A DNA stretch of 64,000 nucleotides from Quillaja saponaria (lineage: Eukaryota; Streptophyta; Magnoliopsida; Fabales; Quillajaceae): positions 17,709,071 to 17,773,070 of the forward strand of contig CM055618.1 in assembly GCA_029379385.1 (NCBI GenBank), written 5' to 3'. Shown piece by piece: positions 257 through 58,822 of this stretch (the first letter of the stretch is position 1; the number at the start of each line of letters is the position of its first letter). The notes under the pieces were generated by a model. That model was given only the letters and a program-made list of their open reading frames with translations. It was not told the DNA's origin and ran no database searches. The translations under genes and the position numbers were made by a program.

Positions 257-3242
257 TTCATGATGTGGTTTACATTCCAGAAGAATACTAATTCCAGGCG
301 TTTTTCTTACATGTCTTCATTCCATGTGAGACCTCACTGTATTGGCATCCTTCCACCTACCAGCTGCCGCATAGATATTATACAGCATCACATATGATCC
401 CGAATTCTGAAAGTCCATTTCCAGGAGAAACTTTCCAATTTCTTCTCCAAGTTCAACATTACCATGAAGTCTACAAGCACCCAACAAAGAGTCAGCATGG
501 TCAAAGAAGGTTTGCAGTGCAGTCCCTTAACAATGTCATAAGCCTCATTCAAGTGACCTGCTCTTCCAAGAAGGTCCACCATGCAAGCATAATGCTCCAT
601 TGTTAGTGGAATCCCCTGCTCTACCATAGAGTTGAATACCATGCGAGCTTGCTCAACCAAGCTGCAGTGGTTACATGTAGATAGTATACATGAGTAAGTA
701 GCCTCATAAGGTCTAATATCTGAAAGTTCCATCTGTGTGAAAAGATCGAAGGCCTCTTCCCCATCTCCGTGCAACCCATACCCATTAATCATCACAGTCC
801 AAGAGATGGCACCCTTTTCATCCAACGTATCAAACAGCTTTTTTGCACACAAAAGGTTTCCACACTGTACATGCATATCTATAAGAGCATTGCTAACAGC
901 CACATCTTTGTCAAAACCCTTCTTCATTAAGTAAGCAATGACAGAATGATTAAGATCTGTGCCATTTAGAGTTAAGATCTGTGCCATTTAGACGAACAAA
1001 TTAAACTTAGAAGTGTTATATAGTCAGGTTCAAGTCCCTGTTGCAGCAAATCACCGAAGAATACAACCACCTTTTTGGCACTGATTGATTGGATGTGGAC
1101 TGACATGATAGCATTCCACAAAGATGTATCTCCCTTTTTCCCCATTTCAAACAACAGGCATACATTCATATTTCCAAATTTAGCGTACATGAATATCAGA
1201 GATGTAATAAGAGGGGTCTCTCTTAGAAATCCTAATCTCAATAGAAACGCATGGACAGATTTACCCGGTAACTGAGTAGAGCACGCAGGCAGTAAATTTA
1301 GCAAGGTTACATCATTTGGCTTGTGCTTGTCTTTTATCATTTGTCTAACCAAGAGAAGGATCTCGTTATGCAAGTTGTGATATCGGAAACCAGTTAACAA
1401 AGCATTCCAAGACACCACATGTCTCTCAGGCATGATTTCAAAAAGTAATTTCCCAGCATTAACATCTCCGCAATTACGATACATGCTTATAAGTGCATTA
1501 ACTACAGAAACGTTGCAACCAACTCCGCTCTTAATAGCATAACCATGAATAACCCTACCTTGTCCCAAATCTTTGCTCCCTCTGTAACTAGGGAGAATAC
1601 TTATCAAGGTGATAAAATCCATTTCTAAATCCTCCCTCTGCATCTGCTGAAGAAGGATGGCTGTCTTATCCACTTCTCCATTATGTATGCACCCACATAT
1701 TAATGTATTCCATGACACAACATCCCTTGTTGTCATTTTATGAAATAAGCCAAACAACGAGGAGATCTGACCACAGTCAGCATAAAAAGATAAGATTGCA
1801 TTTGAGACATTAAGACTCGAGTCAATACCTTTTCTAATCTTAATTGCATGGGCAGACTTACCAGGCAGAATAGCCTCTAACTTGGAGCATGCAGAAAGAA
1901 TATTAATAATGGACACTGCATCAATACCATATCCTGCAAACTGCATTTCACGAAATGCAGCCAAACCGGCATCCCACTTTCCATTATGCACATATTCCAA
2001 AACCATAGAGTTCCACAACATAATATTTCTGCTAGGCACCTTATAAAACAGAAACTTCGCTGATTTGACATCTCCATGCTTCATATACATACAAATAAGA
2101 GCAGTTACAATAGAAACCTGATTTTCCAGTCCTTGTTTGATCAGGCAAGCATGAAGGGATTCACCATCCCAAACACAATTAGATTTCTCACACGAAGGAA
2201 GAATGGAGACAAACGTGATAGTATTAGGCTGGATGTCAGCTTGGAGCATTAGTTGGAACATCTTAAAGGCTTCTAGAGGCTGTTGCCTCTGTGTGTAATG
2301 CAGATATCATAGAATTCCAAACAATAACATCATTTTGAATTGCCGAATCAAACAAGTTTCTAGCAACTGATAAATCCATGCCACCAGCATACATTGAAAT
2401 AAAAGCAGGGTTCAAAAATCCCTCTGAATAGTATTCAGATTTCACAGCAAAACCATGGAGAGATTTACCATTATTCAGACATCCCAAACGTGTACAGACA
2501 GGAATGATGCTGGCTAAAGTGCTCAGGTTAGGCTTTAGACCCGTTTCATGAATCTTCTTGAAAACCTCGAAAGCCTCCTGATCAAGTCCATTCAAAGAAT
2601 AACCCGCAATTAATGCAGTCCATGAAACCAAGTCTGGTTGCGGAATTCTATCAGTCAATACACGTGCGGTTCTCATGCAACCAGACTTTGAATAGAAGTC
2701 AACTAAAGAAGTTTGTATAACAAGATTTTTCTCAAACCCATTCCTTAAACAGAACAATGGACCTGTTTTCCAGACCCAAAAGCACCCAGAGCAGAACAGG
2801 CCGTAATGGCAAACGGAAATGTAAAATCATCAGACGGGCAACCTGAGTCCTTACAATTCGCATAGATACATAAAACATCTTCGTAAAAACCATAACTGCA
2901 AAGGCCCTTAATCATCAGATTCTGCAAGACCACACTTGGCTTGCTGATTCTTCGAAACACAGAAAGAGCAAAATCTGGAGCACCCAAATGAAAACATGTC
3001 TGAACAAATTCTCCAATCAAAAAGTTGTTTACAGCTAGACCGTGAACAATTATAAAAGACTTCAGAGACTTGAGATTCTTGACGTTCCGGCTTAGCCTCA
3101 AAAGACCAACAAAATTTCGGGAATAGATTGAATTATGAGGTGAAATTTTGTCTCCTAATTGTCTAGGCCCGGAACGAAAGAGTTTTGAAGTGGTACATAA
3201 CAGGGGAAAACAATTAAGTGGAACCTGAAAATACGCTGGCAT
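257..3242 (-). pseudogene. PLS-class pentatricopeptide repeat (PPR) gene with multiple frameshifts
   Basis: Four minus-strand reading frames join end to end into one PPR protein of roughly 950 residues. They carry repeated motifs such as VSNALIDMYxxCG, VVSWNALLTGF, KPNDVTLLNLLPAC and GKSVHA, typical of PLS-type organellar RNA-binding proteins. The first ATG in frame is at 3242. Continuity needs four frame changes: a base missing in the A-run at 2747-2749, an extra A at 2297-2298, a disruption near 985-995 beside a 20-base direct repeat (951-970 and 973-992), and another near 502-507. An in-frame TGA at about 312-314 then interrupts a tail that still reads RKTPGIS. PPR genes normally lack introns, so splicing is a poor explanation. 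Neighbouring genes read cleanly, which argues against poor sequence quality. Working copies act in mitochondria or plastids in RNA editing or processing; no DYW domain is seen here. Confidence 0.85.
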
Positions 3243-4065
3243 TAGAATTGGAAGAACAAGAGGCAGATTCAAATCCCGTCGACAATTGCGTGCTACAACT
3301 TTTTCTTGAGTTCCCGCACTTTCTCTTGTACTCCTTTCAAAGTTTTGAAGTGGTAGCTTTAGAGCATCATTTATTAGTTATCATTGCTTTTAAGTAAGTG
3401 CCCAAGGAGTGTGCACCTTATGGTCTGCAACCAAATACACGTGCTATGGCAGGAGAAGGTTTTGTTATCACTGCTTCTTATGGTTGTTTGGCTTTTGTTT
3501 CCAGTATGGCAGGAGAAGTTTTTGCAGTGGCAAGTGATCAAGACCAGCTGGTATGTGATATACGGTGAAAATCGGATTCAGACTCGAACATAATTTGGTC
3601 TCTTATAAGAGAGACAATCTAAAGCAAAATTTAATTTTAAAATTTAAATTTGGTTTTGAATTAGATATACTTTTAAAGAAAATTGGTGTGGCTGTAATAG
3701 TAAAATATGACTCAGCTGTAACATGACTCAAGCATGAGAGAATCCATATTCGGTGAAAATCTCATGTTTTGCAGGTTCGTATAAACTCTCATAATATGAA
3801 AAGCCAAGCTGCGCTTTCATCTTGCACAAAACGCATTCATCACTTGCTACATTTATTTCTTTCACTAGATCTGAAATACAGAACTTCACCCCAGAGAAAA
3901 GCAACTCAATTACTTGATATTGTCAATATAAAGTTATAAACACATAAGTTAAATCAGGTCATACACATAATTGATACATATCACTCTTTTCGTTTAGAAG
4001 CGTTACATATATCTACATTAATGTAACAGCATGACCCAGAAAACATCCCATCTGCATCGATTCTC
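3243..4065. other. Intergenic and centrin 3' region
   Basis: No gene recognised. A 14-base motif (tatggcaggagaag) occurs twice, around 3442 and 3503. The plus frame containing both copies is open but short and matches no family I know. The bases just left of 4066 are probably the 3' untranslated region of the centrin gene. Confidence 0.6.
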
Positions 4066-8939: not shown

Positions 8940-10453
8940 TCAATTGCAGACTTTGCTACTCTTCATAATCATATTCCCTGGTGCTCCAAAGTCAACAACT
9001 TTCAATTCCTTCAGACGGGCCCCACTGAACCCCATTTTCTCATCCCGTCCTCTCTTCTTCCCATTTTTTCCTTTCAACCAAACACCAAACAGTTTCAAAC
9101 TTTCCCCACCAGAACCTTCTCCATCGTCAACCGTGTTTCCGTCATCATCAGTGTCAACAGTAACGTTGTCCCCCATCGCTTCATCGCGGCTGGACCCACA
9201 GCTTCCTTGCCGCATTATGCGATTGATCTGATCCGGACCCACCTTCAGGTAGTCCGACAGAAAAGCTACCAGCTCCTCACATTGTTTCTTGGCTCGCGCC
9301 AGTTCCGAGCTCAGTATCTCGTTGTCCTTCTTCAATTTCCCATTCTCATTTGATAACCCGGCATATTGAGCCGTGGTTATCGTCTCCACCGAACCCGGAT
9401 TCTTCGAATCCGGTGAGGTACTAGAGGTAGATCCCAGGTCCTCACCACCAGAGTTCGACGGAGAATGACCACCCCCTCCTCCGCCGGTTTTATCCAACAG
9501 CGCCACGGATTGTAGCACTGCAGTTTTCCGGCGTCGGATTTGGGACAGTAGCTCTTTCTGTCCTCGCTTGAAATACTCGTTGGCGAATTCCCATTTGTCC
9601 GGTACGATCTTTCGAAATCCCTGGAAAGTGGAAAGATACGCAATTTGATTACTATCGCAAAGTCGTCAGGGTAGGGAAAAAAAAAAACTTTATCATGACC
9701 CTACACGGGTGAACTAAATAGACGGCGCAAACAACCGTCCAATGCATTAAAGCCCGACCCGGCAGCCAAATAAAAATCAACAATAGATTCACATGAAGGT
9801 CCCATCAAGCAGTTCTAGAACCCAGCCACAAAATTAATGCACCATACCACAATTGGACCAAATCAACAATTTTTATTTTTTTTGTCATACATTATTGTTA
9901 ATTCTAGTTTTGTTATTGCCAATCTAAAATTTTAATATTGAAGTATTTACATCATAATTTTGTGATATCAAATTTTTTTATTGCTAACATGATATCTAAT
10001 ATCTATAATTTCTATTCGTGAGTTTAGATAAATATTTATGTTTACAAAATTATCCTTATTTATTCGGACTTGACATAACACAATAATCAATTTGTTTAGG
10101 TATTGCTTGATTATTTAAGCAAACCAACCAAATTCATAAATTGCATATAATTATCAAAAGCAACAAATTGAAACAGCAGTACTTTATTAACATAATCAAA
10201 TAAATAATACTAATAATAATGAAATTTTGAGACAGGAAAGGCCACATACATAAGTGTTAAGCTGGCGGACGAAGCTTGAAAAATTGTTATGCTTGAAATA
10301 ATTGGGAAGTAAATCCCTGGCAAAATCCGCAGTTTTCCAGACCACAAAAGTGTTACCACTTTCACTCCAAGATATCACATCGTCGCTACTGGGATCATCC
10401 ACCAACTGGTACGTCTTGGACAAAAACGGCGCCGGTACCGATCTCTGTCCCAT
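8940..10453 (-). CDS. HSFB1: Class B heat-shock transcription factor HSFB1 (TBF1/HSF4 type)
   Basis: Two exons, 10250-10453 and 8940-9620, give 294 residues. The winged-helix HSF DNA-binding domain covers about residues 6-98 ([20 protein letters not shown], then [17 protein letters not shown] at the exon end and [17 protein letters not shown] after it). The single intron sits at the position conserved in plant HSFs. A heptad-repeat oligomerisation region follows at roughly 150-195. LFGVWLKG at 245-252 is the class B repressor tetrapeptide LFGV. A basic stretch KKRGRDEK at 256-263 is the likely nuclear signal. The C-terminus SSKVCN matches HSFB1 rather than B2 or B4. HSFB1 binds heat-shock elements, represses or tunes heat genes, and in Arabidopsis (as TBF1) drives the growth-to-defence switch. 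The leader has uORFs, and a heat-shock element lies upstream, fitting stress control at both levels. Confidence 0.95.
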
Positions 10454-10577
10454 TTCTTCCCGATCTACCCTTCGCCTACCTCACAAATTTACTGTACTAA
10501 CCTCGATCTAAAATCTAAACAAAGAAAATTGAAAATTCTTCTAGATTGATCTACTAATTTAGGCTTTTGAGGGTTAA

Positions 10578-10712
10578 CTAGTATGATGAGGAGCAACTAA
10601 AGAGAAGAAGAGCGGTGAGGAATTCCCAGTCCCAGCAATAAAAGCCACAGAGGAAGAAGCTGGAGTGAACCGGATTATCTGAAAGCTTGCCGAGATGATG
10701 ATCAGAACCCAT
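10578..10712 (-). promoter_or_regulatory. Conserved peptide uORF (uORF2) in the HSFB1 leader
   Basis: A 44-codon ORF starts with ATG at 10712 and stops with TAG at 10578, 124 bases before the main ATG. Its second half reads FYCWDWEFLTALLLFSC and is rich in Phe, Trp, Tyr and Leu. From memory this block matches the conserved uORF2 of Arabidopsis TBF1/HSFB1, which blocks translation of the main ORF until immune or heat stress releases it. The N-terminal half (from MGSDHHLGKL) is not expected to be conserved. The ORF is too short for usual gene calling. Translation from it would hinder HSFB1 synthesis under normal conditions. That it acts here is inferred from the match. Confidence 0.88.
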
Positions 10713-10764
10713 CGATTTGATCCAGAACGAGTTCTTCAAATTGGTAATTCAGGACAAAGACCAT
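10702..10764 (-). promoter_or_regulatory. Upstream uORF1 in the HSFB1 leader, overlapping the uORF2 start
   Basis: ATG at 10764 opens a 20-codon frame (MVFVLNYQFEELVLDQIDGF) closed by TGA at 10702. Its last 11 bases overlap the first 11 of uORF2 in another frame. A ribosome translating uORF1 would terminate just past the uORF2 start, so the two starts compete. Arabidopsis TBF1 also has two uORFs, so the pair layout is shared; I claim no sequence conservation for this peptide. Confidence 0.6.
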
Positions 10765-10907
10765 AATTAATTTCCCAACGTACAAGAAAACGAAAAAAAG
10801 TAAAGATTAGGAGTAATACTCTTCTGCTTAATTCGTGCACGGGACTCTATTAAAGGGAAATGAACAAAGGAAGAGGCCAAATCAAAGAAAGTGACTGGGT
10901 ACGGTGG

Positions 10908-10925
10908 TTCTAGAAATTTTGAGAA
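10908..10925 (-). promoter_or_regulatory. Heat-shock element upstream of HSFB1
   Basis: The plus strand reads TTC-ta-GAA-at-TTT-ga-GAA: four alternating units at the 5-base spacing of an HSE, with one mismatch (TTT for TTC). It lies about 455 bases before the main ATG and about 145 before uORF1, a plausible promoter position. HSFs bind such arrays, so heat induction and feedback by HSFB1 itself are possible. Confidence 0.6.
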
Positions 10926-10995
10926 ACACTAGTTCTTTTAATTTTAATAAAACGCACCCAGAAAAAAATATATATATCCGTGAGAATTTCGTAAT

Positions 10996-11457
10996 GGCGT
11001 GTTTGGCATGTAGAATTGTGCTTTAAATGGCAGTTGAAAATTGTAGTTAGATTGCTCAAATTTATCTTTTTAAGTTTTGTTATAACTAATCTTAATTGTC
11101 CCCCAAATTCATTGAATTTGAAAACTAATAAGAATTGTCTCAAAAAAATACTAACATTAAATCATAATCCAAGACTTGATAACAGTATTGTCCCACTTTA
11201 ATATATAATATAAATATTATTGTATTGTATATTGAGGAGAGAATTATAATTTTAAATTTATCTTCTTGTTATTGTTTGAATTTGGAATTACATATTTTCA
11301 CAACTTGCTGTCTTATTAATCGTGCTATGTAACAAATGTCAACTATGAACATCGTTGAAATTATAATTTCGGCTTTAATTTGTATAATGTAATTCAAACA
11401 GCCAATTGAATATTCTATTTAATTTCAATTGCATTTTGCTGTTTGCCAAACAGATCC
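10996..11457. mobile_element. Candidate MITE with TGTTTGGCA-type inverted ends
   Basis: The left end reads GGCGTGTTTGGCA and the right end, reverse complemented, reads GGATCTGTTTGGCA. Beyond these, both ends share looser similarity with CAGTTGAAA-like blocks. The interior is AT-rich and non-coding, about 460 bases in all. The ends resemble the GGNNTGTTTGG termini of Tourist/PIF-Harbinger miniature elements. I could not confirm a clean target-site duplication, so family and exact borders are tentative. Confidence 0.45.
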
Positions 11458-16196: not shown

Positions 16197-16880
16197 TCAG
16201 GATGAATTTTGCCTCACTGCACAAGCAACGACCTGAGCCCATTGTCTCAACCTTGTCTTCACCGTCTGTGGATTATCGCCTGTACCCAGTTACCAATTTC
16301 CCGAGAAACAAACACCCAAACATGAATTAAACATAAAATTCACGGGAAAAATAAGAAGAAGAAAGAATATTTACCCAAATTAATTGACAGAGAAAAAAGC
16401 TCTAAGTAACTGGAAAGTGAAGCTATGCATACCGCGGCCGAATATGGTGGTGTGGGGGCTACCGAGGGGAGAGGGGGTTTCACACTCAGACGGAGTGGGT
16501 GAAGACGACGTCGTTGTGATGGAGGACTTGGGGGCAAGCAATTCATTGTAATTTTTGTTAACGGCATAGTACAGGCCGAGAGCCGGTAAGGTATCGGACA
16601 GGCGTTGATCGAGCTCAACCTCAGGGGAGGAATCGAATCCGAAACCCAATTCAATACACGCTTTGAGCTCGTCAAGGTCTTCGTCCGTTACGCTTTTACT
16701 ACGACGGTTTTTGCTGTTGCCTTTGCGTCGAAGCCACGCCTCGTCGCGATATGCATCTGGGGACCACGATCGCTGCTTGTACAGAGGTGCAGGCTTCAAG
16801 CGATGAAGCAGAGGATGCTGATCCCGCGACCGAGGAGGGGGTAAATATGGTGGTAGCGGCGGCGCGTGAGGTTCAGACAT
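16197..16880 (-). CDS. DUF1685 family protein
   Basis: Two exons, 16433-16880 and 16197-16279, join in frame to 176 residues with the ATG at 16880. The N-terminus is rich in Pro (residues 5-31), followed by a basic Ser/Arg patch (51-63). At 65-82 is the family hallmark DEDLDELKACIELGFGF, then a segment with LPALGLYYAVNK. The second exon supplies the conserved end TVKTRLRQWAQVVACAVRQ. The hallmark and the terminal helix together identify the plant-specific DUF1685 family. Family members are small proteins of unknown biochemical function, some reported as stress or hormone responsive. No signal peptide or membrane segment is visible. The intron phase and the joined Gly-Asp codon support the model. 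Confidence 0.88.
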
Positions 16881-29925: not shown

Positions 29926-31140
29926 ATGGTGGACGTGGACCGGAGGATGGCTGGTCTGAACCCGGCTCACATAGCCGGGCTCCGCCGCCTGTCTGCCCGA
30001 GCCGCGTCTGTCTCATCAACCACCACTGCTTCAGCGTCCGTTCCTTCACGTAATGGTCTCCTTTCCTTCTCATCCCTAGCTGATAAGGTCATTACCCACC
30101 TCCGAAATTCTGGCATACAGGTCCAACCTCGTCTCACAGATGCTGAATTTGCTCGCGCAGAAGCTGAGTTTGGCTTCGTGTTCCCTCCGGACCTTAGAGC
30201 CGTTCTTGACGCTGGGTTGCCGGTCGGTCCGGGATTCCCCGATTGGCGCTCTGCCGGAGCTCGGCTTCACCTTCGTGCTTCTCTTGATCTGCCCATCGCC
30301 GCTATTTCGTTCCAAATAGCTCGAAACACACTGTGGTCCAAGTCTTGGGGTCCGAGACCGTCTGACCCAGAAAAGGCGTTAAAGGTAGCTAGGAATGCTC
30401 TCAAGAGAGCACCTCTTTTGATACCCATCTTCAACCATTGCTACATTCCCTGTAACCCTTCTCTAGCTGGAAATCCCATATTCTTTGTGGATGAGAATCG
30501 GATCTTTTGTTGCGGTTTGGATCTTTCAGATTTCTTTGAACGTCAGTCCCTATTTGGGAGTACCGAACCCCATCCCCAGCTCCTGAAAAAGCAAAGATCC
30601 GTTAGTGAAAAGTCGGCCGGGTCGTCGATGAATTTCTCACGGCGAAGCCTAGATACGGGCATCTCCTCCGGAGGTAGAACACCGCGTTGGGTCGAGTTCT
30701 GGAGCGATGCGGCTATAGATCGGCGGAGGAGTTTCAGAAATTCGTCTTCGTCCTCGTCCTCGTCGCCGGAGAGGTTCTTTGACATGCCTAAATCCGAAGC
30801 CCCCAAATGGGTAGATGAATACATTGAACAAATAGGATCCGTTTTGAGAGAAGGCGGGTGGAGCGAATCGGATATATCAGAAATGGGGCAGGTCTCGGCG
30901 TCTGGATTCTTCGAAGGGGAGATGATTTTGTTGGATAATCAAGCAGTACTAGATGCTTTACTCTTGAAAGCGGATCGATTTTCGGATTCGCTTCGAAAAG
31001 CTGGGTGGAGCTCCGAAGAGGTATCGGACGCCCTTGGATTTGACTTTCGACCTGAGAAGGAACGGAAACTGGCTAAGAAGCTATCCCCAGAACTTGTGGA
31101 GAAAATCGGTAAACTGGCTGAGTCAGTTTCTCGGTCATAA
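29926..31140 (+). CDS. Intronless SMI1/KNR4 (SUKH)-like protein
   Basis: One uninterrupted 404-codon frame from ATG 29926 to TAA 31138-31140, GC-richer than its surroundings. Residues 70-110 ([20 protein letters not shown], then [18 protein letters not shown]) have the signature of the SMI1/KNR4 or SUKH fold: an acidic helix, the FGFxFPPDLR turn and the PGFPDWR segment. [17 protein letters not shown] and [12 protein letters not shown] (about 166-205) resemble the later strands of the same fold. A poly-Ser stretch (about 270-279) and a [10 protein letters not shown] helix region follow, then two similar segments, [13 protein letters not shown] and [15 protein letters not shown]. In fungi KNR4/SMI1 is a cell-wall signalling scaffold, and bacterial SUKH proteins are often toxin immunity proteins. 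The plant role is unknown to me. No signal peptide is seen. Confidence 0.8.
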
Positions 31141-47463: not shown

Positions 47464-49465
47464 CTACTGGAGTTGAAGATAGATAGCAGCAGCTCCCAAT
47501 CTAGTTGAATTTACATAATCTTGAGGATTATGAGCTGCTAAACCAGGAAATACAAGTCCAAAAACCCTAGCTGATTTGAGTAACCAACCTTCTGCATAAT
47601 CTGGCCCTTTTGTGTATGGTATAATGAAGCTTCTTACCAGTTCCCAAATAGCATTTAGCAAAATGGGTATCCAATCCAACAGCTTAAAATAGTTCTTGTT
47701 TGGCTCTTCCTCAAGAATCTGCAACAACAAAAAAAACCAGTCAGATTAAAAATTAAGTAATAAGAACTTTAAAAAGTGGGAGAATTTTAACTTTTTTACC
47801 TTCCCTCCATAACAGCTATTGTAGTATAGGCAGGTTCCAAAATGCTTGAATAAAAACGTTGAGTCATCCATAGGCAATCTAGGAATGATATCATTACAGT
47901 ACACAAACCTCAAATACTTGAAACCATAATTTTGCAGTTGTTCTTCCATGAAATCTTTAAACTCCTTGTCTCCAACTCTAGGCTGCCCAAATGTATATAC
48001 ACCTTCCAACCTATTCAACAACCATGTTTCCTCGTGAAATGCAAGAATTGCTGGAAATAGAATTGCTAATGCACCTCCCAAGCTGTGTCCTGTCACTATG
48101 AATCTTGTCCTGCAGTTGCCCTGTAACTGTAATTGTTCTTTCAGCTTTTCTCTGATGGAATAGTAAGCTAGTTGATGTTTAGCATCCTTCTCAATTTCCA
48201 TAGGCCAACCCCTATACCTCAGCAAGCCTAGAGCTTTCATAAAGCCACCATGAATTTTTCCCATGCCAGGGATCTCATACCATGATAAATCAAGGTCAGT
48301 ACACCATGCATCTGCATCATATGGTTCAGTGCCTCTAAAAGCCACAACTATAACATCAGAGTCATCATTCTTGTCATGAAAAAAGAAGGCTTGTGTTGTT
48401 TCTTTCTCTTGAAAATCTGTAACAAGTACATTCCATGATTGATTTATACAAAATTAAAGTAATAGCTGGGAAAATATGCCTAACAAAGTATTGGGGGTCG
48501 GTCTTAACTGCAAATTTGAGTTAAGAACGATGGATTTATGCAAAAGGGGACAGATCACTTGTTCTAATATAGTCAGAATAGAATCATATAACAACTGAAT
48601 GAAAGGAATGGAATGTTATTTACCATTCCAAAAATCGTAAGAGCCGAGTACTTCCATCTGCAGAACAAGTCCAAATTAACATCTAGACGTGGGAATTATT
48701 TGACATGACAGTGAGCTAGCTAGAGAGAGAAGCTAGCTTGCCTTCCAGTGATCTCTAACAGTAGTTTCAATGAAAGCTTTGTTCTCATAGGCTATTTTAG
48801 AGGCCATGGCAGATAGAGCAGCATGATATCTGGTATCTCCTGGCTTGATATCTCTGTCCAACTCAACCCGCTTGTCTAAGTGTCCAAAAATTGACACAAA
48901 AGTTTCTGATGTTTTATCAGTCATTAACAACTTTCCTACACAGCATTAAGCCCAATATGCCCATTAATCACAAATCACAAAAGTATCAATCTTTGCTGTA
49001 TTTTACACCCAATACTATTAACAAAAGCATAATAGCTAGTAGCACCCAAACCCAATTAGTATATTATACTAGTAACTAAATTGGACGTAACCATTAGAAC
49101 AGAACCACCCAACAGAGGAAATTGACAATCAAGAGAAAGCATCAAAGCACAGCCTAACCTCGTAAAAGATCACATAACAGAAGCACCCAAGATTTGCTGT
49201 TGTAGGAGGGAAGGTTCAGCCATTGTTCAAACCATGACCCAAAGTTTGACATGGGTTTGGCAAGGGATAGCAGAATCTTTTGCCCCAAGACAGAAAGAAA
49301 AATAAACCATCTGTATCTGAAATGAATTTTCTTCTTCCCTTCTGAACACTCAACAAAAGCCCTTTTCTCAATGTCACAGCACCATAATGTTAGAAACAGA
49401 TCAACCAGACCCACTTCCTCTGGTCTCAATACCATGTAATTACCGGAAAAATCATGGGAAGCCAT
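47464..49465 (-). CDS. Class 3 lipase, oil-body lipase (OBL1) type
   Basis: Five exons (49159-49465, 48742-48935, 48624-48657, 47800-48416, 47464-47718) sum to 1407 nt, 468 residues. The alpha/beta-hydrolase nucleophile motif is GHSLGG at 288-293 (Ser290), with candidate Asp354 ([10 protein letters not shown]) and His447 ([10 protein letters not shown]) completing the triad. An oxyanion-side VVAFRGTEP precedes it. The N-terminus has a long hydrophobic stretch at about 50-75 ([16 protein letters not shown]), which in OBL-type triacylglycerol lipases anchors the enzyme to oil bodies. [12 protein letters not shown] and KGPDYAEGW are family blocks. The donor after exon 2 is GC instead of GT (AAG|GCAAGC), and it is needed for the frame. 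The enzyme probably releases fatty acids from storage or membrane lipid; the substrate is inferred from family. Confidence 0.92.
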
Positions 49466-53302: not shown

Positions 53303-54085
53303 TCAACTAAGCATTTGCATAGAGCCCACCATTGGAGTAGGTTGGTAACCCTTCAATAAAGCAGAGTAATTCACATTGGCATTCGTCGTCATTCCCTGGA
53401 AAACAACACCCAACGATCTTTTTGCCCCAGCTTGTTCAAGTGTCTGAACCTGTTTCTTTAAGAACTTCACGTAATGTATAGCTTCATCCAACATTGAAGC
53501 AGTATCCATTTTAGTACCTCCAGGAACAAGTCTCTGAAGAATTCTTATTCTTTCACTTATTCTCTCCCTTCTGTGCCTTGCAGCCACACTCTGCGGATCC
53601 TTGGAAATCTTCACGTTCCTTCTTTTTGGTGGCTTCACAGATTCTGGGTCTATATGAATCGGTTGCATTACCGCTATCCGAAAGATCATCTCTCTCATTG
53701 CTGCCATAGAATTTCTCTTCTGTGGTGGATATGCTAATGTGTTTGGATTCTTGAGTGATCTTCCAGCTGAAATGACATTATTGTATTGAAATGGTGTTGT
53801 CATGTGTTCTTGATTTGGGTTGCTAATTAATAAAGCAGCACAAGAAACTGGAGGGTTATTAATCAAATTGGGTGAAGCTACATTTGGTTCTTGGAATATG
53901 GGTGGTATGGTTGCAATGCTTGTGGAGCTGTTTCCAGTTCCAACAGAGAACTCTGTTTCTGGATATATGGGATTGTTATAAAAAGGGTCGCAGAAATCAG
54001 TAAACTTTTCCATTTGCATCATCATTGCCATCATTTCCATGCTGTTATCCCCTGCTGATGAAGTTTTCACTATGCCCACGTCCAT
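53303..54085 (-). CDS. HECATE-type bHLH transcription factor
   Basis: Intronless, 260 residues, ATG at 54085. The N-terminus has a Met-rich segment and METEKFTDFC-like block ([11 protein letters not shown], about 22-32), as in HEC proteins. [20 protein letters not shown] (127-146) and [20 protein letters not shown] (152-171) lead into the bHLH at about 161-217, with [19 protein letters not shown] and [15 protein letters not shown]. The block is nearly identical to Arabidopsis HEC1/HEC2. The basic region lacks the His of classical E-box binders (Gln at that place), typical of the clade. HEC proteins dimerise with SPATULA and control gynoecium and transmitting-tract growth, shoot meristem activity and auxin/cytokinin balance. 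Intronless structure also fits HEC genes. Which HEC paralogue cannot be settled. Confidence 0.93.
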
Positions 54086-57515: not shown

Positions 57516-58438
57516 ATTGTTTTTCCTCTCAGACCTCTTCCGAGTCAATGATCATTCAATTTGACTTCTTAGTTTCTAAAGCCTTTGAACTTTTATTTTC
57601 TCCAGGTCCTCCATTTAGATTGAAGACAAGTTGAGAATCGTAATTTTGGTCTCAGTCATATTTTTAATGTGTTTAAATTATTCAAAAATTATGATATATG
57701 ATTATAATGAAAAAAATTATTTATATGTAAATTATAAAAAATATTTTCATTTATTTTTTTTATAAAATTGATTTTATTATTCAGTTTGATAATAAGAAGC
57801 ATAAAAAATATATAAGGGACTGTTTGAACGCGCCACTGAGAAACTGCCTCATACGTACAGCGTGGATGCCGGCTGCCACGTACCAAAATGGCTTGCCGGC
57901 CGCGGTGTCCATGATGCCGATCCAAACCGATGTCTATTCAACTACGCGGCGCTAAGTAAGAGTTAACATATAAAAACCTTCAAAATACAATTTTCAAAGT
58001 AAACTGACTTTGTATTGTTGTTGCATCACCGCTATTCATCTTCATCATCTGATTCCTATCAGTCTAAATTCTTATGATTCCAAAAATCAAACGACCTCCC
58101 AAATTCTATATCCTGCACATTACCACACTAGATAAATCCTCCGCACAGAAGACAAACAAGACCGCACGACAAAAATAAAACTAAAGAAAATAGAGGACAG
58201 GAGGCCCTTAATTGAGGCATTGATTGTGCACAGCTGTAACCCAATCAGACTCTTACCAACATGCCCTACAGCTCCATGTGACCTTTCTTTGTCCTCTGCC
58301 CCCTCCTCTGTTTTTTGTACACTGGCTTCGGAACCACCTCATCCCAAAAACCGATTACCCTCTAAAACTTAAAATCCCATAAGCACGGACTATACCCACC
58401 AAGTGAAAAATTCACCATCTGTGTCTGTGTCTGTGTCT
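57516..58438. other. Intergenic and RALF gene upstream region
   Basis: No coding. ATATAAAAACC near 57968 could be a distant TATA box. A short GC-rich island lies at about 57830-57955 in AT-rich DNA. A (tgtgtc)3 repeat stands just before the RALF ATG. Confidence 0.5.
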
Positions 58439-58822
58439 ATGGCTTTCCCGGCTCTTCCCAGGCTTGCCCTGTTCATTTGCTTCGCTATTTACCTCTGTTC
58501 CGCTCCCTGTGTTCGTTCTCAGATCGATGAAACGAGCTTGAAGTTGTTAATGACGGACGCTTTAGAATTTTCCACCACTACAATGTCGGTATTCGACCAG
58601 CTAGACGGCGATGAAGTGGACGGCATAGAGGGTGGGTTCGATCGTAGATCTCTTTACTGGCGGAGACCATACTATATCTCCTATGGTGCGCTCTCTGCTA
58701 ATAGAATCCCATGCCCAGCTCGATCAGGAAGGTCCTACTATACCCACAACTGTTTCAAAGCAAGAGGCCCTGTTCACCCTTACACCAGAGGCTGTTCTGC
58801 CATCACTCGCTGTAGAAGATGA
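58439..58822 (+). CDS. RALF34: RALF34-type rapid alkalinization factor prepropeptide
   Basis: Intronless, 127 residues. The ATG at 58439 opens a classic signal peptide (hydrophobic core about 9-21, cut near residue 27). An acidic propeptide follows, then the S1P-type protease site RRSL at 69-72. The mature peptide starts at about Tyr73. It carries YISYGAL (79-85), the receptor-binding motif, and four Cys at 92, 105, 119 and 125 that form the two RALF disulfides, and ends in RCRR. RRSLYWRR and SGRSYYTHNCFKARGPVHPY are diagnostic of RALF34. RALF peptides are secreted, raise apoplastic pH and bind FERONIA/THESEUS-type receptor kinases with LLG/LRX partners. In Arabidopsis RALF34 signals through THESEUS1 in lateral root initiation. 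The open frame extends upstream to a GTG, but no earlier ATG exists. Confidence 0.95.
   Translation: MAFPALPRLALFICFAIYLCSAPCVRSQIDETSLKLLMTDALEFSTTTMSVFDQLDGDEVDGIEGGFDRRSLYWRRPYYISYGALSANRIPCPARSGRSYYTHNCFKARGPVHPYTRGCSAITRCRR

What the first reader, a model, noticed from the sequence alone, without database searches (positions are those of the whole stretch)
10578..10764. HSFB1 carries a conserved peptide uORF whose start overlaps the end of a second uORF
Seen: uORF2 encodes FYCWDWEFLTALLLFSC and ends 124 bases before the main ATG; uORF1 begins 52 bases upstream of it and its last 11 bases overlap the uORF2 start in another frame. Known: Arabidopsis TBF1/HSFB1 is held back by two uORFs, with an aromatic-rich uORF2. 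Inference: here a ribosome that reads uORF1 runs past the uORF2 ATG, so uORF1 could protect HSFB1 from uORF2 stalling, making a two-step switch.
Basis: partly seen in the sequence, partly recalled or inferred. Interest (0 to 1): 0.75.

Follow-up and report, generated by a model that had tools for sequence, protein, structure and literature searches.

The report
Overlapping uORF pair before HSFB1
A plant heat-shock and defence gene carries, just ahead of its protein, a well-known conserved brake peptide, and a second small reading frame runs across the start of that brake; the brake is ordinary, and whether the overlap does anything is open.

Summary
On the minus strand, uORF1 (10764-10702, 20 codons) overlaps the first 11 bases of uORF2 (10712-10578, 44 codons) out of frame; uORF2 ends 124 nt before the HSFB1 start (ATG 10453). 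uORF2 is the HG18 conserved-peptide uORF already described for Arabidopsis HSFB1/TBF1: of 39 relatives found, 14 share the 16-residue core GFYCWDWEFLTALLLF exactly. The peptide and its repressive role are not new. The added detail is that uORF1 runs across the uORF2 start. Ribosomes translating uORF1 must then miss the uORF2 AUG, but such an overlap arises in 25-29% of simulated leaders. Its conservation could not be tested, because no plant DNA was reached; two Clitoria gene models give ambiguous hints. 'Protection' of HSFB1 holds only if reinitiation after uORF1 exceeds leakage past uORF2. A review reports Arabidopsis uORF1 as without effect in one study and inhibitory in another, against protection as the default. 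I favour: uORF2 is the regulated brake; uORF1 diverts ribosomes and adds a reinitiation-dependent filter. AdoMetDC and SAC51 leaders are precedents for bypass.

The parts
10702..10764 (-). uORF1, 20 codons (MVFVLNYQFEELVLDQIDGF), stop TGA at 10704-10702; AUG context A at -3, G at +4
10578..10712 (-). uORF2, 44 codons, HG18 conserved-peptide uORF of HSFB1/TBF1; AUG context T at -3, G at +4
   Evidence: HG18 in PMC2075485 and PMC3426882 (passages)
10702..10712 (-). 11-nt out-of-frame overlap: the uORF1 stop TGA is made of the last base of uORF2 codon 3 and the first two of codon 4
10596..10646 (-). DNA of uORF2 coding the conserved block GFYCWDWEFLTALLLFS
10454..10577 (-). 124-nt spacer between uORF2 stop and main ATG (248 nt lie between uORF1 stop and main ATG)
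8940..10453 (-). HSFB1 main ORF, two exons (exon 1 ends LNTY, exon 2 begins GFRK; splice sites placed by eye, frame checked)
10908..10925 (-). Heat-shock-element-like run TTCTCAAAATTTCTAGAA upstream of uORF1
   Evidence: consensus match only
10848..10854 (-). TATA-like TTTAATA; would put a transcript start near 10825, upstream of uORF1 (inference)
   Evidence: consensus match only

Best explanation
This is the 5' leader of a flowering-plant (probably eudicot; species not identified) HSFB1/TBF1 orthologue. uORF2 encodes the HG18 conserved peptide and is the main regulated brake: its translation keeps ribosomes from the HSFB1 start under normal conditions, with release under heat or immune signals (reported for Arabidopsis, inferred here). 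uORF1 comes first and has the better start context. Ribosomes that translate it stop 11 nt inside uORF2, so they pass the uORF2 AUG and can reach HSFB1 only by reinitiating across the 248 nt below. uORF1 is therefore most likely a diverter: it trades uORF2 repression for a reinitiation-dependent route, and at ordinary reinitiation efficiency it is neutral or mildly inhibitory rather than protective. Shown here: anatomy and peptide identity. Inferred: transcript start, translation of either uORF in this species, and the direction of uORF1's effect.
For: Peptide: 39 relatives at E <= 10 (7974 candidates scored), 14 of 39 identical to the window over the 16-residue core. HG18 belongs to At4g36990 HSFB1/TBF1 (PMC2075485, PMC3426882; passages). 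Repression lifted by heat (PMC12303099, passage); uORF2 is the major inhibitory uORF and loses ribosomes after elf18 (PMC10499604, passages). Start contexts: uAUG1 A-3/G+4, uAUG2 T-3/G+4, main AUG G-3/G+4 (the rule that A or G at -3 is good is recalled). HSE-like and TATA-like sites lie above uORF1, and uORF1 holds the first ATG below 11009. One search, assumed values with p1 = 0.8 and no reinitiation after uORF2: uORF1 lowers output in 9 of 12 sets and raises it in 3 of 12. Review: Arabidopsis uORF1 without effect or inhibitory (PMC4746267).
Against: No transcript, ribosome-profiling or reporter data for this species. The parameters are assumed. PMC10499604 (passages) shows that structure below a uAUG raises its use; folding found no structure beyond shuffles below uAUG2 here (100 nt: -23.1 against -21.4 +/- 2.8 kcal/mol, z -0.60; 50 nt: z +0.97), but folding alone cannot exclude one. 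Of the nine stretches folded, the only two beyond |z| 2 were the 50 nt below the main AUG (z -2.78) and the 50 nt above uAUG1 (z -2.06); the latter could lower use of uORF1. uORF1 may be barely translated, and then it does nothing. IRES/R-motif entry below the uORFs, reported for TBF1 (PMC11062462, passage), would make uORF1 matter less.
Confidence: 0.62

Rival explanations
1. Protective two-step switch: uORF1 shields HSFB1 from uORF2, as the tiny uORF of plant AdoMetDC is said to shield its main ORF from the small uORF.
For: Geometry; good uAUG1 context; AdoMetDC precedent (PMC7503886, passages); in SAC51, disrupting each of four non-conserved uORFs lowered reporter output and the authors suggest these lead ribosomes past the conserved uORF4 (PMC6504692, passages); with assumed p1 = 0.8, uORF1 raises output when uORF2 initiation is 0.7 with reinitiation 0.4, or 0.9 with reinitiation 0.2 or 0.4 (3 of 12 sets).
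Against: Arabidopsis uORF1 reported as without effect or inhibitory (PMC4746267). T at -3 of uAUG2. A 20-codon uORF is longer than the AdoMetDC tiny uORF (12 bp in PMC7503886), and longer uORFs usually allow less reinitiation (recalled). PMC2527020 (passage) notes controversy over the effect of the AdoMetDC tiny uORF itself. Overlap not shown to be conserved, and 9 of 12 sets give a fall.
Confidence: 0.17
2. uORF1 is incidental: little translated or without regulatory role, and the overlap is chance. uORF2 alone regulates.
For: Chance overlap 25-29% in simulated leaders. One Arabidopsis study found no role for uORF1, as reviewed in PMC4746267.
Against: uAUG1 has the stronger context of the two uAUGs. 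The peptide start MVFV resembles the Arabidopsis uORF1 start as I recall it (MVVV; recalled, from no call).
Confidence: 0.19
3. The reading frames are not in the mRNA as drawn, because of a downstream transcript start or a leader intron.
For: No transcript data were available to exclude it.
Against: uORF2 peptide conservation. HSE-like and TATA-like sites lie upstream of uORF1.
Confidence: 0.02

Closest known systems
HG18 conserved-peptide uORF of Arabidopsis HSFB1/TBF1 (At4g36990 uORF2)
   Different: Here the peptide continues SSSY after FSC, and uORF1 crosses the uORF2 start; in the Arabidopsis leader as I recall it, uORF1 ends about 18 nt before uORF2 (recalled, from no call).
Plant AdoMetDC (SAMDC) tiny/small overlapping uORF pair
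   Same: First uORF terminates at or past the start of a conserved-peptide uORF, so the two are alternatives for a ribosome (PMC7503886, passage).
   Different: AdoMetDC overlap is 1 nt and the tiny uORF 12 bp (PMC7503886); here 11 nt and 20 codons. Different main ORF; polyamine control is not implied. No sequence comparison of the two was made.
SAC51 leader (HG15), non-conserved uORFs ahead of a conserved uORF
   Same: Authors suggest that upstream uORFs lead ribosomes to bypass the conserved one (PMC6504692, passage).
   Different: Six uORFs; [quoted passage not shown] thermospermine-responsive.
GCN4/ATF4-type reinitiation control
   Same: More than one uORF, with reinitiation as a possible route to the main ORF; the likeness has been proposed for TBF1 (PMC3426882, PMC6687712; passages).
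   Different: Here uORF2 is passed because uORF1 overlaps its start, not by delayed reloading (inference); [quoted passage not shown]

Membership tests
HG18 CPuORF of HSFB1/TBF1 | uORF peptide with the GFYCWDWEFLTALLLFS-type core | tested here: met
   14 of 39 relatives identical over 16 residues; G-F-Y (the anchor of the count), W5, T11 and L14 in 40 of 40 rows including the window.
HG18 CPuORF of HSFB1/TBF1 | Lies upstream of an HSFB1-type main ORF on the same strand | tested here: met
   The B1 subclass rests on LFGV and the uORF itself; no HSF tree was built.
[quoted passage not shown]
   (scan of 10451-11100): ATGs at 10764 and 10712; the next ATG up is at 11009, above the TATA-like sites. 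Holds only if the transcript starts between 11009 and 10764.
HG18 CPuORF of HSFB1/TBF1 | Represses the main ORF, relieved by heat or immune signal | not testable with these tools
   Needs reporter or Ribo-seq; reported for Arabidopsis (PMC12303099, PMC10499604; passages).
AdoMetDC-type overlapping uORF pair | First uORF ends at or past the start of a conserved-peptide uORF | tested here: met
   (11 nt).
AdoMetDC-type overlapping uORF pair | Tiny first uORF, one-nucleotide overlap, AdoMetDC main ORF | tested here: not met
   20 codons, 11 nt, HSF main ORF. Works-like comparison only; not filed as a member.
AdoMetDC-type overlapping uORF pair | Overlap conserved among orthologues | tested here: inconclusive
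   No plant DNA found (0 matches; the genome search did not complete). Two Clitoria gene models, back-translated at random: the uORF1 frame crosses the uORF2 start with probability 0.69-0.79 (P0019) and 0.38-0.42 (P0007), conditional on the uORF1 ATG being there, which 26-36% of random codon choices give.
uAUG-ds hairpin (PMC10499604) | Stable structure downstream of the inhibitory uAUG | tested here: inconclusive
   Computed fold below uAUG2 no stronger than 300 shuffles: z -0.60 (100 nt), +0.97 (50 nt). No probing, and the Arabidopsis leader was not folded as a yardstick.
R-motif | Purine-only run in the leader | tested here: inconclusive
   No run of 10 or more purines in 10451-10830; the published consensus was not scored.

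The most novel reading that the evidence does not exclude
In this lineage uORF1 has come to run across the HG18 start and acts as a true decoy, so HSFB1 has an AdoMetDC-like pair in which the first uORF raises basal or stress output by keeping ribosomes off the repressive peptide.
Probability: 0.15. Interest if true: 0.55.

Novelty: new member of a known kind. Interest (0 to 1): 0.3.

Why it matters
The TBF1 leader with its two uORFs is used as a pathogen-inducible translation cassette in crops (PMC12515504, PMC9998923; passages). If some species have a uORF1 that crosses the start of the brake, natural leaders offer a ready comparison of how uORF order and overlap set basal leak and inducibility, and a test of whether bypass of a conserved-peptide uORF is used beyond AdoMetDC and SAC51.

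Tried and rejected
Plant DNA for a leader alignment: the degenerate pattern for FYCWDWEF found 0 stretches in viral contigs and 0 in genome contigs. The third protein search (P0019 residues 70-113) found only P0019 itself. Paper searches for the peptide core and for recalled Arabidopsis strings gave 0 papers. The TBF1 paper of 2012 (PMC3298764) is not held.

Considered and dropped: that the SSSY tail makes uORF2 abnormal. Tails after the final F of the 16-residue core run from 1 to 47 residues in 40 rows, and P0028, P0029, P0031, P0032, P0033 and P0038 end in SSY or TSY, so a fixed stop position is not a defining feature. Also dropped: that residue 4 being D or E (25 of 39 relatives, 26 of 40 with the window) shows a conserved TGA in the uORF1 frame. 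It only permits one if codon 3 ends in T, and the Met nearest the core was taken as the start, which is arbitrary for rows such as P0023, P0026, P0034 and P0037. No row was dropped before the counts; paralogues and near-copies were kept, so rows are not independent.

Full report
Observation. The window carries an HSFB1 gene on the minus strand. The main ATG is at 10453; exon 1 ends LNTY, exon 2 begins GFRK and runs to the stop at 8940. The spliced 294-residue protein matches Pfam HSF_DNA-bind (E 3.1e-32) and contains LFGV. Two ATG-started frames lie in the leader: uORF1 10764-10702 and uORF2 10712-10578, overlapping by 11 nt, with 124 nt from the uORF2 stop to the main ATG. The species was not identified; that it is a eudicot is inferred from the nearest uORF2 relatives (legumes at 74-79% BLASTP identity).

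What uORF2 is. A phmmer search found 11 relatives, and the profile of these plus the window found 39 at E <= 10 (only the 7974 candidates sharing most words were scored). GFY was the anchor of the count and no row lacked it; W5, T11 and L14 of the core are also kept in 40 of 40 rows including the window. 14 of the 39 relatives are identical to the window over the 16 residues GFYCWDWEFLTALLLF (15 of 40 with the window). Named sources include Medicago, Glycine, Clitoria, Populus, Theobroma, Quercus, Carya, Brassica, Daucus, Nelumbo and Spirodela; 10 rows with FYVWGW come from sources labelled jgi, ena or lgn that name no organism and look grass-like (inference). This is homology group 18, listed for At4g36990 HSFB1 and rice LOC_Os09g28350 (PMC2075485, passages; PMC3426882, passages). 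Against the Arabidopsis uORF2 DNA recalled from memory (its translation equals P0010), 5 of 18 core codons differ, 5 of 5 synonymously. PMC3426882 says that each Arabidopsis uORF peptide has four phenylalanines; by direct reading uORF1 here has three and uORF2 five.

Transcript context. Consensus matches only: a heat-shock-element-like run at 10925-10908, TTTAATA at 10854, and TATATA at 10976 and 10974. Any of these TATA-like sites would place the start above uORF1 and below the next ATG at 11009 (inference). No transcript evidence was available.

How it may work. uAUG1 has A at -3 and G at +4; uAUG2 has T at -3 and G at +4; the main AUG has G at -3 and G at +4. Ribosomes that use uAUG1 end 11 nt inside uORF2 and thus miss uAUG2. 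In a leaky-scanning sum with no reinitiation after uORF2, uORF1 raises HSFB1 output only if reinitiation after uORF1 exceeds the fraction leaking past uAUG2; with p1 = 0.8, 3 of 12 assumed parameter sets gave a rise and 9 of 12 a fall. So the overlap ensures bypass but not benefit. In Arabidopsis the gap between the two uORFs, as I recall it, is so short that reinitiation at uAUG2 should be poor as well; the overlap would then change the degree, not the kind, of bypass (inference).

What is known of the parts. Heat lifts the repression by this CPuORF (PMC12303099, passage). In Arabidopsis uORF2 is the major inhibitory uORF, loses ribosomes after elf18, and a hairpin below uAUG2 promotes its use (PMC10499604, passages). 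A review states that one study found uORF2 but not uORF1 to regulate AtHSFB1, and that another found both inhibitory with uORF2 epistatic (PMC4746267, passage; it treats HSFB1 and TBF1 as if separate, while PMC3426882 lists them as one gene). GCN2 dependence is reported for bacterial challenge (PMC6687712, passages); the same paper cites a study in which GCN2 was not required for elf18, and PMC9998923 (passage) cites another that found GCN2 unimportant for innate immunity. PMC11062462 (passages) adds galactinol as a modulator of this CPuORF and R-motif IRES entry as a way round the uORFs. Bypass of a conserved uORF by an earlier one has precedents in AdoMetDC (PMC7503886, passages; PMC2527020, passage, notes controversy over the tiny uORF's effect) and SAC51 (PMC6504692, passages).

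Is the overlap meaningful? Simulated upstream leaders (first-order Markov, 20,000 each at assumed starts 10824, 10860 and 10945) contain an out-of-frame uORF crossing the uORF2 start in 28.8%, 26.4% and 25.2% of cases. Orthologue DNA was not reached. Of the 39 relatives, two Clitoria models (P0019, P0007) extend upstream in the uORF2 frame with L/I-W-Y-L-S, compatible with an ATGGTA in the uORF1 phase 37 and 40 nt before the uORF2 ATG; by eye, the other extended models (such as P0001, P0006, P0036 and P0038) gave no such sign. If the codon before W ends in A (26-36% of random codon choices), the uORF1 frame crosses the uORF2 start with probability 0.69-0.79 (P0019) and 0.38-0.42 (P0007), counting frames open to the end. 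This is a hint that the layout may recur, no more, and for P0007 it leans the other way.

Structure. Nine stretches were folded against 300 shuffles each. Below uAUG2: z +0.97 (50 nt) and -0.60 (100 nt), so no sign of the Arabidopsis-type hairpin. The 50 nt below the main AUG (z -2.78) and the 50 nt above uAUG1 (z -2.06) were the only ones beyond |z| 2; with nine tests these are weak. No run of 10 or more purines lies in 10451-10830.

Print check. Searches were made. One search (HsfB1 and uORF) listed 12 papers: I saw passages of 7 and only the listing of 5 (PMC6878703, PMC13187910, PMC6165531, PMC10482922, PMC9687914). I saw no mention of an overlapping uORF1/uORF2 in an HSFB1 leader. The library holds only CC0, CC BY and CC BY-SA papers and I read passages, not whole texts, so this is a limited absence.

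Verdict. A genuine, ordinary HG18 uORF in an HSFB1 leader, with an overlapping uORF1 whose effect is unknown.

Noticed in passing
P0001-P0039 and window 10581-10598: The uORF2 tail after the core's final F varies from 1 to 47 residues in 40 rows, so the conserved block is not anchored at a fixed distance from the stop codon; any arrest would have to tolerate this.
   Followed up: partly
window 388-3272, minus strand: What looks like one pentatricopeptide-repeat gene lies in four listed ORFs (388-987, 972-2261, 2263-2757, 2745-3272); only 972-2261 was scanned (PPR_2 E 5.6e-36). Pseudogene, frame errors or introns not told apart.
   Followed up: no
window 53303-54085, minus strand: bHLH gene, HLH domain E 1.7e-7.
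   Followed up: no
window 58403-58822, plus strand: RALF peptide-hormone precursor (Pfam RALF E 1.4e-21).
   Followed up: no
window 47746-48345, minus strand: Class 3 lipase exon (E 9.3e-33).
   Followed up: no
window 16380-16880, minus strand: DUF1685 protein of unknown function (E 4.9e-27).
   Followed up: no
window 29926-31140, plus strand: 404-residue ORF with no Pfam family at E 0.001.
   Followed up: no
P0019 and P0007 (Clitoria ternatea): Gene models that extend the uORF2 frame far upstream of its usual ATG; annotators have called this uORF a protein-coding gene in several species.
   Followed up: partly
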